This document shows, piece after piece, positions 23,365 through 46,349 of a stretch of 64,000 bases of DNA (position 1 is its first letter; each line of letters opens with the position of its first letter). The position numbers and the translations under genes were made by a program. The DNA comes from Pseudobutyrivibrio sp. OR37. GTDB lineage: Bacteria; Bacillota; Clostridia; Lachnospirales; Lachnospiraceae. The stretch is from positions 62,001 to 126,000 of the forward strand of contig NZ_FOQF01000007.1 in NCBI RefSeq assembly GCF_900113655.1, read 5' to 3'. The notes beneath the pieces were generated by a model. That model was not told the origin of the DNA and ran no database searches. It saw only the letters and a program-made list of their open reading frames with translations.

Positions 23365-23380
23365 AGATGACCTCCTCGTA

Positions 23381-23468
23381 TTACAACTTATTACATGTTT
23401 ATAATCATCTTACAACTTATTACAGGTTTTATTTTATATTACAACTTATTACATGTTATTACAACTTT
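23381..23468. repeat. Three 19-bp direct repeats with 29-bp period upstream of the ATPase gene
   Basis: TTACAACTTATTACATGTT occurs at 23381-23399, 23410-23428 (one change) and 23439-23457. A partial fourth (TTACAACTTT) is at 23459-23468. The first copy begins 17 bases from the ATPase start. The exact phasing suggests cooperative binding of a regulator, perhaps the ATPase itself. Confidence 0.8.
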
Positions 23469-35442: not shown

Positions 35443-36252
35443 TTAAATGCATTTCTTTTGGATTTGTTTTTCTACTGTTTTGGTATTAAGCCCCTTTTTC
35501 GATGATTCCATTGATATCAACAAATTCTCTCCCAGCGCCAGGTTGCTTTCCTCATATCCATGAATCTTTTCCATGTTTTTGGTGGCATATTCTTCCTGAT
35601 CTATCAGCCCCAAATGCTCCCAATACAGGGTTTCTCTAGTGCGCAGGTTCAGTACCGCAAAATCCGGACATGCCCTGCGCCCATTTGCAAGCTTAATCAT
35701 CGGCTCATAAACATAAGGGATATTGTATTTATGAAACAAGTCCGCCAGTATCTTTTCCGACTTAGAACGCACCTGCTCCCCCTTCTCCGTGTAGATGTTG
35801 CCTTCTATCGGATAGGAATTCTGCCCACCCTTGTGCTCTTCATACCATTTTGCTATGAAGACTTCATCGCTTGGGATTATTGGGGTGATGTAGGGTTTCT
35901 TTGCAGATGGTTGCTTATTATATACTGCCTTGATTTCAGATAAATCGATTTCTCTGAGATTCTTAGCAATTCTAGTAAGCTTCTTTTGCATTTTAACTAA
36001 CTTTTTATTTACTTTAATATCATAATCTCGTTGTATAAGGCTGGAATACTTTACTAAATCTGAAATCTTCAAATATTTCCTTGTATTCATTGCTCTATCA
36101 ACACAATAGAATTGTTCATATCCTCGATTCATTGATGATTGAATATGAATATCTGCTATATTGTTATATTGTGCTATCTGCTTATTTGATATACGAAGCA
36201 GATTATTTACTTCTTCCAATTTGATATCTATTTTTCTTATTATTTCTTTCAT
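35443..36252 (-). CDS. Predicted PD-(D/E)XK-like nuclease
   Basis: A 269-residue protein. The C-terminal part (about 150-240) has the pattern of a restriction-endonuclease fold: Glu in RSKSEKILADLF, then ACPDFAVLNLRTRETLYWEH, giving E...D...E-x-H. The N-terminal half is basic and helical (about 1-110) and includes a KYLKISDLVKYSSLIQRDYD segment seen in a widespread, unnamed Firmicutes family. Substrate and role are unknown. A noncoding array of eight 52-bp units lies 53 bases upstream of its start, which is the only obvious neighbour. Confidence 0.65.
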   Translation of the reverse strand: MKEIIRKIDIKLEEVNNLLRISNKQIAQYNNIADIHIQSSMNRGYEQFYCVDRAMNTRKYLKISDLVKYSSLIQRDYDIKVNKKLVKMQKKLTRIAKNLREIDLSEIKAVYNKQPSAKKPYITPIIPSDEVFIAKWYEEHKGGQNSYPIEGNIYTEKGEQVRSKSEKILADLFHKYNIPYVYEPMIKLANGRRACPDFAVLNLRTRETLYWEHLGLIDQEEYATKNMEKIHGYEESNLALGENLLISMESSKKGLNTKTVEKQIQKKCI

Positions 36253-36304
36253 TAGAACTCCTTTTAAATCTTTATAAATAATGTATTTCCTTTTAACAAA
36301 TGTG

Positions 36305-36720
36305 AATTACAGTGTTATTGTATTTTTTATTCTAGACACTGTACTCATGGCGACCGCATTGCAGTGCAACTACTATTTTGTATAAAATAACTGTAATGAT
36401 TATTGTCCCGTTACAGTGCCGATGATATTTTTTCATTTCTGACTGTAATAATTAGTTGTGCATTACAGTGTTCTCATTATTTTTCTATATAGCGCTGTAA
36501 TGATTCATAATTTTTTACAGCGCCATTATATATTTATCTATATACACTGTAATCACTTTTCCATCCTTACAGCGCTAGCATCTTTTTTTCTATTTCCACT
36601 GCATTAAATCAATACTCCATACAGTGCTTTCTTCAAATCTCTGATTTGCACTGTATTTGTATCCTGTCCATTACAGTGCAAACTAGGATTTTTCCAATAG
36701 CACTGTATTCGGCAGATTTT
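36305..36720. repeat. Array of eight 52-bp units with inverted ATTACAGTG/CACTGTAAT motifs
   Basis: The core CAGTG (or CAGCG) occurs at 36310, 36362, 36414, 36466, 36518, 36570, 36622 and 36674, exactly 52 bases apart. The inverse core CACTG (or variants) occurs at 36337, 36389, 36441, 36493, 36545, 36597, 36649 and 36701, also exactly 52 apart. Between cores are a T-rich variable stretch of 22 bases and an inner variable stretch. Each CACTGTAAT...ATTACAGTG pair can form a hairpin; at one place (36493/36518) both arms changed together to CGCTGTAA/TTACAGCG. No ORF spans it. Confidence 0.93.
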
Positions 36721-36825: not shown

Positions 36826-37641
36826 CTATTTTTTCTGTAAAATGTCGACTGTGTGGGCGCTGGCGCCGAGCAAGTCGGCGCGCTCGCAGACGGCCATCTG
36901 ATACTGTATGAAGGTCGCGAATTGCTCCTCAGAAAGAGCGTTGACCTCGCGGCGCATGTGATTCGCAGGGCCGTCTGGCGATATGATTTGTACGCGGGCT
37001 AGCTCGGCGTCCGAATTCAGCGACTCAATGTCCTCTGTTCTCATGAACGCGTACAAATCATCAGCGCCCGGCCGTACGTGGTAGGCTTCGTCCAGCTTTC
37101 CTTCAGCAATGTTCTCTAAGACGTGGCCCTCCTTGATTCCATAAGTAAGAAAGGCATATTCATTCATAACATATGCTACAAGAATATAGCCGCCAGGTCT
37201 TGTGACACGCTTGGCCTCGCGCAGTGCCTGAAGCTGTTCTTCTCTAGTCTTTAGGTGATACATTGGCCCAAACAAAAGTGTAAGGTCAAAGCTATTATCA
37301 TCAAAACGCTTTAGCTTTAAAGCATTTCCCTGGAAGGCCTTCACGCCAGTGCCTTTGGCTTTAAGCATGCCAAGGTTGTGTTTTACCAGCTCAACAGCGG
37401 TAACATCGTAGCCCTCGTTCCAAAGGGGGATGCTGTAGCCTCCGGTGGCGGCGCCTATATCTAAAATCTTTATATCTGACTTCGCCTTAGGCTGTGCATC
37501 TGGCATTTCTTCGCCACGCTCTAGTATGTCTAGATATTTGTGAACGTATTTCATGGTTACTGTGAATTCCATGATGCCATGGCGCGACTTAAGGCGTTTG
37601 TCTTCGTTGAATTTGTTGTAGTATTCTTCTAAGTTTGTCAT
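36826..37641 (-). CDS. Class I SAM-dependent methyltransferase
   Basis: A 271-residue methyltransferase with motif I DIGAATGGYSIPL (residues about 53-65), acidic motif II (VTAVELVKHNL) and LLFGPMYHL. The substrate is unknown. The start at 37641 (MTNLEE) uses the GAGGG supplied by dispersed repeat copy D. The last 60 codons are much richer in GC than the rest of the gene and its neighbours, which hints at a recent recombination or a different origin. Confidence 0.88.
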   Translation of the reverse strand: MTNLEEYYNKFNEDKRLKSRHGIMEFTVTMKYVHKYLDILERGEEMPDAQPKAKSDIKILDIGAATGGYSIPLWNEGYDVTAVELVKHNLGMLKAKGTGVKAFQGNALKLKRFDDNSFDLTLLFGPMYHLKTREEQLQALREAKRVTRPGGYILVAYVMNEYAFLTYGIKEGHVLENIAEGKLDEAYHVRPGADDLYAFMRTEDIESLNSDAELARVQIISPDGPANHMRREVNALSEEQFATFIQYQMAVCERADLLGASAHTVDILQKK

Positions 37642-37644
37642 ATT

Positions 37645-37698
37645 ACCCTCATCCACCGCTAACGCGGTCCCCCTTCCCCCTGCTCTCAGGGGGAAGGC
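37645..37698 (-). repeat. Dispersed palindromic repeat, copy D
   Basis: CCCTCATCCACCGCTAACGC, then GGTCCCCCTTCCCCC and GGGGGAAGGC: the same family as copies A-C with a different middle hairpin. It sits between secA and the methyltransferase start, donating GAGGG as the ribosome site. Confidence 0.75.
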
Positions 37699-44960: not shown

Positions 44961-46349
44961 CTATACCTTGTCTAATTGATTCATTGCTATTTTAATAGCC
45001 CTATATGAAGAGATTATATTTTTACTTAAAATATATGAGCTTGCATCTTCGATTTTGTTATTAGTTTCTGCCGTACCATCAACTAGATTTATTATAGACA
45101 TGCATTCACGATAAGCTTGTTGCTCATATTTAGGTCTATCCAAAATATTTTCTATTATTATACTTGTACAAGAACCTATAAATTTTGCCTGATTAATGAA
45201 ATAATTTCTATTTATTTTTATTTTATCGTTGTTTGTTGGTAGATGACTTTCATCTGTGATATATTTCCCTTTACCAACGCTTCTGTAATGAGATGCTATA
45301 AAAATTCTACCATTAAATAAGTCAATTTTATCCTCAAATATATGTATTTCCAACTTAGTACCAATATACTGCCACGGAGCTGAATAATAGTTGTCTTCGA
45401 AATTTATATGACTATCATATTCCACTTTTATCTTTTTTATTTTAAATATTTCAAACATATAACTTGGCAAATTAGCTAAGCTATCTTTTTCATATTCAAC
45501 AAAAATTTCATATAGGGAGCGTCCATTATTTATATCCTTAATCGCATTTACACTCTTAAGTAATTGCTCATTATATAATGCTATATTATTTTGATAGAAA
45601 TCATTATTCTTTTTTACAATAAAATTTGCACTCTGTAGCAATCCTTTCATTTTTGATAATGATATATACGATACTTCTAAGCTGTAGAATTCTCTCATTC
45701 TTTCAAACATAACATCATTTGTAGTATTGCTTTTTGTAGTTATTATTTTACATGGTAAGCCATCAACAAAAGTAAACAAATCATTAAGAGCATTTATTAA
45801 CGAGTATACCGAATTGTCTTCATATGCTTGAATATAACAATACTTAGAATATTGAAAGAACGCTATAAAATAATAGATACTATCAGTTTTTTCTTCATCA
45901 TCAAATTTTGTTGTTTCTGGCAACCAACACACCAATACTGATTCACCTGGAAGACCATTAACTGCCTTATTAATATCGTTTACGTCTTTAAAATATTTGC
46001 AAAAAGAAGCATATTTATAATACGCTACCCCATCATTTATGCACTCTTTAACATATTCTTCCCAACATTCTTTGAAGCTTTTTTGTTCGTAAAAAAGCTT
46101 ACAACTTATCGCCGACTTATCAGGAAGACGCTTGCCAGTTTCTGTATATTCATTTAAACCAAACAGTTCAATCATAAAATCTTCATCACTCATACCAAGT
46201 AATTGTGTTTCTCGATTTTGTGCCATTTTCAGTGTTTTTCGTATCGTAGGATACGTAGTCCCGACAATTTCAGCGATTTTACTTCTGTTAATTCCAGAGT
46301 CATTTAATTCTATTATTTTTTTATAAGCCTTTGCATTTAGCTTACTCAT
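44961..46349 (-). CDS. IS21 IstA-like protein lacking the DDE catalytic residues
   Basis: The 462 residues follow the IstA layout: N-terminal HTH (about 8-42, SGINRSKIAEIVGTTYPTI), an RNase H-like middle and the Mu-type C-terminal DNA-binding barrel (about 325-355, NYYSAPWQYIGTKLEIHIFE). The usual V-D-W of the core is VCW here (Cys141), the Y-D-N site is TTKSN (about 205), and the final Glu position reads GLLQS (about 240). All three acidic residues are therefore missing and DNA cleavage is not expected. It may bind the terminal repeats just downstream of its gene. It is last in a six-gene operon. Confidence 0.72.
   Translation of the reverse strand: MSKLNAKAYKKIIELNDSGINRSKIAEIVGTTYPTIRKTLKMAQNRETQLLGMSDEDFMIELFGLNEYTETGKRLPDKSAISCKLFYEQKSFKECWEEYVKECINDGVAYYKYASFCKYFKDVNDINKAVNGLPGESVLVCWLPETTKFDDEEKTDSIYYFIAFFQYSKYCYIQAYEDNSVYSLINALNDLFTFVDGLPCKIITTKSNTTNDVMFERMREFYSLEVSYISLSKMKGLLQSANFIVKKNNDFYQNNIALYNEQLLKSVNAIKDINNGRSLYEIFVEYEKDSLANLPSYMFEIFKIKKIKVEYDSHINFEDNYYSAPWQYIGTKLEIHIFEDKIDLFNGRIFIASHYRSVGKGKYITDESHLPTNNDKIKINRNYFINQAKFIGSCTSIIIENILDRPKYEQQAYRECMSIINLVDGTAETNNKIEDASSYILSKNIISSYRAIKIAMNQLDKV

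What the first reader, a model, noticed from the sequence alone, without database searches (positions are those of the whole stretch)
36305..36720. Eight-unit noncoding array with an exact 52-bp period and inverted CAGTG/CACTG motifs
Direct cores lie at 36310 + 52n and inverse cores at 36337 + 52n for n = 0 to 7, without a single base of drift, while the sequence between them varies freely. This means spacing and palindrome are under selection but the filler is not. One pair shows matched changes in both arms (CGCTGTAA with TTACAGCG). The period equals about five helical turns. It is not a CRISPR: the conserved parts are only about 9 bases each. It could be a protein-binding array, a chain of RNA hairpins, or a partition/replication-type site.
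Basis: seen in the sequence. Interest (0 to 1): 0.85.

Follow-up and report, generated by a model that had tools for sequence, protein, structure and literature searches.

The report
Phased DNA array beside a nuclease
Gut and rumen Clostridia carry many copies of a gene for a likely DNA-cutting enzyme, and most copies examined have next to them a private row of short mirrored DNA sites, spaced in whole turns of the double helix, that the enzyme itself probably binds.

Summary
In detail: eight units, exact 52-bp period, window 36304-36719. It is one case of a widespread arrangement. The array lies directly upstream of a minus-strand gene (35443-36252) for a 269-aa PD-(D/E)XK-type nuclease. Among 122 homologous loci, 101 show an upstream period or motif signal. 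In this genome, five of ten copies have clear arrays (4 or more units) and two weak ones (3 units), each with a different core. Unit spacings are whole multiples of 10.5 bp (67 protein clusters, R=0.86), which points to double-stranded DNA rather than RNA hairpins; arms show no compensatory coupling. Core sequence tracks the protein's N-terminal 62 residues, weakly (r=0.16) but specifically. Outside Lachnospiraceae, arrays occur in 8 of 12 loci whose protein has that N-terminus and 0 of 8 without it. Genes with this N-terminus but no nuclease, often beside toxin-type genes, carry a single inverted repeat of similar geometry upstream (15 of 19). Best reading: the nuclease binds its own phased array, which represses and holds it. 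Binding, repression and cutting are inferred; function is open.

The parts
36304..36719 (.). array of eight 52-bp units
   Evidence: exact period, 11 invariant columns; kept without a gap in three relatives
36307..36314 (.). direct arm TTACAGTG of unit 1; the others follow at +52n up to 36671-36678
36337..36344 (.). inverse arm CACTGTAA-type of unit 1; the others follow at +52n up to 36701-36708
36325..36328 (.). T-run in the middle of the loop of unit 1 (repeats at +52n; A-run on the gene strand)
   Evidence: T in 7, 8, 7 and 6 of 8 units; function not tested
35443..36252 (-). 269-aa nuclease gene directly downstream of the array; array-to-start distance 54 bp by the arm-based measure
   Evidence: no Pfam hit; residues 154-266 resemble the C-terminus of PADLOC PDC-S68
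36067..36252 (-). codons 1-62: N-terminal helix plus three-stranded sheet, the proposed array reader
   Evidence: arm sequence tracks this region; arrays absent without it; secondary structure
35449..35766 (-). codons 163-268: PD-(D/E)XK-type nuclease domain (S163, K164, E166, D197, E212, H213 invariant)
   Evidence: alignment of 108; best Foldseek hits Bax1, DrdV, Can2, MunI, none at E<=0.001

Best explanation
The array is a row of helically phased double-stranded DNA sites for the nuclease encoded next to it. Each unit is a pair of inverted half-sites (TTACAGTG-N22-CACTGTAA here) read by two copies of the protein's N-terminal domain. Units sit at whole numbers of helical turns, so bound proteins line up on one face of the DNA and can form a continuous nucleoprotein stretch. 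The most likely role is self-repression and holding: as with the single inverted-repeat sites in front of genes that carry this N-terminal domain without the nuclease, bound protein shuts off its own gene, and the many extra sites hold the nuclease so that little is free. Shown by computation: array, phasing, association with the N-terminal domain, motif-protein covariation, single-site counterparts. Inferred: binding, repression, nuclease activity, and what the free nuclease does.
For: Association: 81 of 122 upstream regions hold at least 3 units, 0 of 610 shuffles and 0 of 122 coding stretches do; 25 of 39 loci with 700 bp on both sides have one upstream, 1 of 39 downstream, 0 of 39 in the gene. 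Phasing: 153 distinct spacings in 83 loci cluster at multiples of 10.5 bp with phase near zero; 83 spacing classes from 67 protein clusters give R=0.864 at 10.45 bp, 5000 uniform draws reach at most 0.42; without the 5-turn class R=0.857 (n=50); 16 differences between spacings inside 14 loci R=0.848. Not RNA-like. Specificity: Mantel r=0.164 (P=0.002, the lowest value 500 permutations can give) for residues 1-62, 0.156 after removing the C-terminal effect; C-terminus after removing the N-terminal effect 0.010, P=0.33. N-terminus present: arrays 8 of 12; absent: 0 of 8. Genes with the N-terminal domain but no nuclease: 15 of 19 have an 8-bp inverted repeat with a 21-24 bp loop within 120 bp upstream, shuffles average 0.89, at most 4; in several the right arm runs into a TATAAT. 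Alleles at one chromosomal position carry different cores.
Against: No binding or expression data. 21 of 122 loci show neither signal, and three of the 89 'periodic' loci have lags of 26-35 that fit no class. Three of ten copies in this genome have no array found. The motif-protein correlation is small. Promoter scans do not settle where transcription starts: sense, antisense and further-upstream scores are alike (5.98, 5.84, 6.33), and the window scan is inconclusive. Simple self-repression does not explain up to 18 units. The loop range for the single-site test was chosen after seeing examples, and several of the 19 are related. Register of arms and single sites is similar, not identical. 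The three-stranded sheet found no structural relative. In this genome, weak off-array matches (2-3 mismatches) number 32 against 17 for one control pattern, unexplained.
Confidence: 0.62

Rival explanations
1. The array is the nuclease's own cleavage and recombination target: cuts in it promote copying or spread of the gene together with its array (homing-like), and tandem expansion follows from repair.
For: Inverted half-sites around a spacer look like the site of a dimeric cutter that carries its DNA-reading domain on a nuclease (inference). Some arrays are recent tandem expansions (period identity above 0.9 in many). In L038 the gene lies between two same-direction copies of its array, 89.7% identical over 329 bp. 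Alleles and gene content vary at the same position: nuclease in 10 of 25 genus loci.
Against: Only 1 of 39 loci has a downstream copy. Arrays in old lineages keep exact spacing, which repeated cutting would be expected to disturb. Phasing over 5-9 turns is not needed for cutting. No empty-array target was found or searched for systematically.
Confidence: 0.12
2. The array is transcribed and acts as RNA, like the repeat antitoxin of type III toxin-antitoxin systems.
For: Position upstream of a nuclease gene; the array ends within 60 bp of the start codon in 34 of 83 loci, leaving little room for a promoter between; strong TTGACA/TATATT-type sites lie upstream of some arrays; gene-sense purine bias in 62 of 83; low folding energy, z -7.4.
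Against: 10.5-bp quantisation; no arm co-variation and no strand preference of G-U pairs; 6 of 83 arrays are strongly pyrimidine-rich on the gene strand; the other strand folds as well, z -9.5; no Rfam match in the window at gathering scores.
Confidence: 0.08
3. A host protein other than the nuclease binds the array, for example for nucleoid structure or partition, and the nuclease is only a neighbour.
For: Phased A/T-rich tracts bend DNA; arrays are long.
Against: Core sequence differs from copy to copy in one genome and follows the adjacent protein's N-terminus; arrays are not found beside nucleases lacking that N-terminus (0 of 8).
Confidence: 0.06

Closest known systems
Self-repressing operators of toxin-antitoxin operons (type II kind)
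   Same: inverted half-sites upstream of the gene; the N-terminal domain occurs as a separate gene beside nucleotidyltransferase (NTP_transf_8, DUF6036), DUF3990, Fic and NADAR genes and fused to HipA_C
   Different: here reader and nuclease are one protein, no second gene was identified, and the operator is multiplied into a phased array
Iterons of plasmid Rep proteins and parC centromere sites (recalled)
   Same: many phased sites read by the product of the adjacent gene, which also regulates that gene
   Different: chromosomal, units are inverted pairs 5-9 turns apart, product is a nuclease, and each copy has its own specificity
Type III toxin-antitoxin (ToxIN; passages of PMC8860590)
   Same: repeat array directly upstream of a nuclease gene
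   Different: ToxI acts as RNA pseudoknots and ToxN has another fold; evidence here favours double-stranded DNA
PDC-S68 candidate defence proteins (PADLOC)
   Same: C-terminal nuclease domain (E 4.3e-25 over residues 154-266)
   Different: those models are about 1200 residues long; no array association tested
DUF6788 (Pfam PF20586)
   Same: weak matches of nuclease-free relatives of the N-terminal domain (E 0.0015 and 4e-4, below the curated cut-off)
   Different: the window protein itself has no match
CRISPR arrays
   Same: regular array beside a nuclease gene
   Different: repeats are about 8-bp arms in inverted pairs; fillers are inherited between relatives

Membership tests
Type III toxin-antitoxin | tandem repeat array directly upstream of a nuclease gene | tested here: met
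Type III toxin-antitoxin | repeats act as structured RNA | tested here: not met
   no arm co-variation, no strand preference; B-DNA phasing. Indirect; transcription was not tested
Type III toxin-antitoxin | toxin of the ToxN fold | tested here: not met
   model with PD-(D/E)XK-type hits and PDC-S68 C-terminus match
CRISPR-Cas | near-identical repeats separating unrelated spacers | tested here: not met
   inverted arms with degenerate positions; fillers shared with relatives
Type II toxin-antitoxin | DNA-binding self-regulator reading an operator upstream | tested here: inconclusive
   operator-like sites and an N-terminal reader inferred; binding not tested
Type II toxin-antitoxin | toxicity neutralised by a separate antitoxin | not testable with these tools
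   needs expression in cells; no partner gene identified
PD-(D/E)XK nucleases | conserved acidic active-site residues in the characteristic fold | tested here: met
   E166, D197, E212 invariant in 108 sequences; fold hits to Bax1, DrdV, Can2, MunI are weak (best E 3.8e-3)
Iteron or parC-type arrays | role in replication or partition of a replicon | not tested
   chromosomal loci; plasmid search found only C-terminal-domain hits

The most novel reading that the evidence does not exclude
The array is a DNA antitoxin: a chromosomal leash that keeps a potentially lethal nuclease bound and inactive. When the array is lost or destroyed (locus loss, or host DNA breakdown during phage attack) the nuclease is freed and acts, giving an addiction or abortive-defence module whose antitoxin is DNA. 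Copies in one genome would need different cores so that one array cannot hold another's nuclease.
Probability: 0.2. Interest if true: 0.93.

Novelty: categorically new. Interest (0 to 1): 0.83.

Why it matters
I found no named system that pairs a nuclease with its own helically phased array. The rating is for the arrangement; its building block, an inverted-repeat site read by an antitoxin-like domain, is ordinary, and a reader who counts every multi-site operator as one kind would call this a new variant. If the reading holds, one protein family offers dozens of natural reader-site pairs, useful for learning how a small beta-sheet domain changes DNA specificity, and a direct test of whether DNA itself can act as an antitoxin. 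It would also explain a class of noncoding arrays in gut and rumen Clostridia that repeat finders miss. Nine literature searches of an open-access library returned nothing on it; subscription papers and preprints were not covered.

Tried and rejected
RNA hairpin chain: rejected as main reading on phasing, co-variation and strand tests, although the region folds well on both strands. CRISPR: rejected. Known RNA family or tRNA: none in the window at default thresholds. Dispersed sites in the genome: with up to 3 mismatches 40 forward hits, 8 in the array and 32 elsewhere, against 17 for one control pattern; no off-array hit has fewer than 2 mismatches; the mild excess was not followed. Promoter position: not resolved. 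Plasmid, phage and virus collections: only matches to the C-terminal half or two thirds. Same-genome avoidance of shared cores: 0 of 31 same-genome pairs share a core against 51 of 3365 others; suggestive only. The second structure library was unavailable.

Mended during checking: I had counted L228 among proteins without the N-terminal domain. A dedicated N-terminal model finds it weakly there (E 1.8e-4) and nothing at E<0.1 in L230-L237, so the contrast is 8 of 12 against 0 of 8 (one-sided Fisher about 0.004, by hand), not 8 of 11 against 0 of 9. A matching control for the wide loop range gave 0 of 420 shuffles with 3 or more units. L229, also returned, was not tested.

Rows dropped: 3 of 125 unique loci had under 250 bp upstream. 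In one search, 22 genes were chosen from the rows; 3 (L255, L259, L260) gave no alignment and were dropped; L245 and L248, fusions to long proteins and L267 (the nuclease itself) were left out. L246 and L247 are longer (231 and 182 aa) than the usual 100-124. In 7 long fusions, 4 have an inverted repeat of the same loop range.

Full report
What is there. Window 36304-36719 holds eight units of exactly 52 bp. Each has a left arm TTACAGTG (36307+52n) and a right arm CACTGTAA (36337+52n), 22 bp apart, with a T-run between. Eleven of 52 columns are identical in all eight units; 2000 shuffles give at most 3 at any period from 40 to 59. On the minus strand the array leads into a 269-aa gene, 35443-36252. 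It has no Pfam or NCBIfam hit; residues 154-266 resemble the C-terminus of PADLOC PDC-S68 (E 4.3e-25). In 108 aligned relatives S163, K164, E166, D197, F198, E212 and H213 are invariant. The predicted structure is confident (pLDDT 94.8): a long helix, a three-stranded sheet (35-61), a long helix, then a nuclease fold. Foldseek gives PD-(D/E)XK nucleases first (Bax1, DrdV, Can2, MunI), none at E<=0.001, and no relative of the N-terminal part.

Relatives. The window lies in a genome whose closest named relatives are Pseudobutyrivibrio (L031-L033, 82-87% identical protein, same array). The gene family occurs in 126 of 397 genomes sampled from the same family (candidates scored per genome were capped). 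This genome has ten near-full-length copies, one decayed fragment and one hit to the nuclease domain in a longer frame. Five of the ten have clear arrays with 4 or more units (cores TTACAGTG, CTACGTCT, TCATCCCA/GCATCCCA, CTACTATCT, TTACCACT), two have weak ones with 3 units (GTTAAGTT-type, TAGTATAT), and in three none was found. Across 122 loci with at least 250 bp upstream, 89 are periodic at z>4, 81 hold at least three units within 800 bp, and 21 show neither signal; 0 of 610 shuffles and 0 of 122 coding stretches hold three units. Three of the 89 have short lags (26-35) and may be something else.

Helical phasing. Lags of the periodic loci fall at 51-54 (39), 56 (1), 61-64 (20), 71-75 (17), 83-85 (2), 94 (1) and 103-107 (6), plus the three short ones. 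Unit spacings measured separately by motif in 83 loci take 153 distinct values (once per locus), at 50-54, 61-65, 71-75, 81-85, 94-96, 104-108 and 124-127, with none between these groups. The best trial period is 10.5 bp with phase near zero, so spacings are whole multiples. With proteins clustered at 60% identity, 83 spacing classes from 67 clusters give R=0.864 at 10.45 bp; 5000 uniform draws reach at most 0.42; without the 52-bp class R is 0.857 (n=50); differences inside single loci give R=0.848 (16 values, 14 loci). Eight arrays from other Clostridia families have best lags 53, 63, 73, 62, 54, 61, 83 and 63.

DNA, not RNA. Within units, arms change independently: 495 one-sided against 44 two-sided changes, 24 complementary against 22.8 expected; G-U pairs do not favour a strand. 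The purine-rich strand is the gene strand in 62 of 83 arrays, but 6 are strongly the other way. Both strands of the window array fold well as RNA (z -7.4 and -9.5), as any inverted repeats would, so folding does not decide. In 34 of 83 loci the array ends within 60 bp of the start codon, so some arrays may be transcribed; promoter scans did not settle this.

What reads it. Arm similarity between loci follows identity of residues 1-62 (Mantel r=0.164, P=0.002; 0.156 after removing the C-terminal effect) and not the nuclease domain once that is removed (0.010, P=0.33). The effect is small, and 0.002 is the lowest value 500 permutations allow. In other Clostridia families arrays occur in 8 of 12 loci whose protein has the N-terminal domain and 0 of 8 whose protein lacks it; the lacking ones are also the more distant relatives. 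Genes with the domain but no nuclease lie before NTP_transf_8 genes (5 of 19), DUF3990 (4, one by eye), DUF6036, Fic and NADAR (1 each) and glycosyltransferases (2); in 5 no next gene was recognised. Fifteen of the 19 have one inverted repeat with a loop of 21-24 bp within 120 bp upstream (shuffles 0.89 on average, at most 4), sometimes running into TATAAT. The loop range was set after seeing examples, and some of the 19 are near relatives. The domain is also fused to HipA_C (2) and AAA_14 (5) proteins. That several of these partners are toxin-type families is recalled knowledge.

Alleles at one place. Downstream of the same methyltransferase gene in 25 genus loci, ten have the nuclease. Four, including this genome, have the TTACAGTG array. 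Three alleles at 59-62% identity have clear arrays with another core (GGGCAGTA- or GCAGTACT-type: L189, L205, L206). Two more (L187 with a stop after codon 108, and L194) have irregular sites, and in L193 none was found by that scan. In the other 15 no nuclease and no TTACAGTG array was seen in the stretch held; other cores were not sought there.

Mechanism. Most likely two N-terminal domains bind each unit; phased units align the proteins on one face; bound protein represses its own gene and is held at the array. The step from single operators to arrays is inferred from comparison. What the free nuclease does is unknown. A bolder reading is that the array is a DNA antitoxin. A rival is that the array is the nuclease's cutting target in a homing-like cycle; one locus (L038) has its gene between two same-direction array copies, 89.7% identical over 329 bp, which fits array recombination.

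Literature. Nine searches of the open-access library found nothing on this arrangement; DUF6788 occurs in no paper there. I saw passages only of PMC2701414, PMC10440598 and PMC8860590, and listings of the rest. The Panacea antitoxin domain (PMC10440598, passages) is a known case of one domain paired with many toxins.

Noticed in passing
L038 (own genome C33): The nuclease gene lies between two same-direction copies of its array, 89.7% identical over 329 bp; the only such case in 39 loci with both flanks.
   Followed up: partly
L238-L244, L246, L247, L249-L254, L256, L264, L270, L271: The N-terminal domain as a gene without the nuclease, in front of nucleotidyltransferase, DUF3990, Fic or NADAR genes, with a single inverted-repeat site at the promoter: looks like a modular self-regulator of toxin-type operons.
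   Followed up: partly
L257, L258, L261, L262, L263, L266, L269: The same domain fused to HipA_C or AAA_14 proteins; 4 of 7 have an upstream inverted repeat of the same loop range.
   Followed up: partly
L187 and L116: Two broken nuclease genes: L187 (stop after codon 108) has irregular sites, L116 (74-aa frame) still has a regular array. No rule about array decay can be drawn.
   Followed up: no
L228 (genome G1018): A 1.9-Mb genome with ten matches to the family and a diverged N-terminal domain; the one locus tested has no array.
   Followed up: no
window 23379-23467: A separate tandem repeat with periods 10 and 29 (TATTACAACT-type).
   Followed up: no
window 44961-46349: An open reading frame that by eye resembles an IS21-type transposase.
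   Followed up: no
downstream of the methyltransferase gene (window 36826-37656) in L184-L208: A variable spot: nuclease alleles in 10 of 25 loci, other genes in others.
   Followed up: partly
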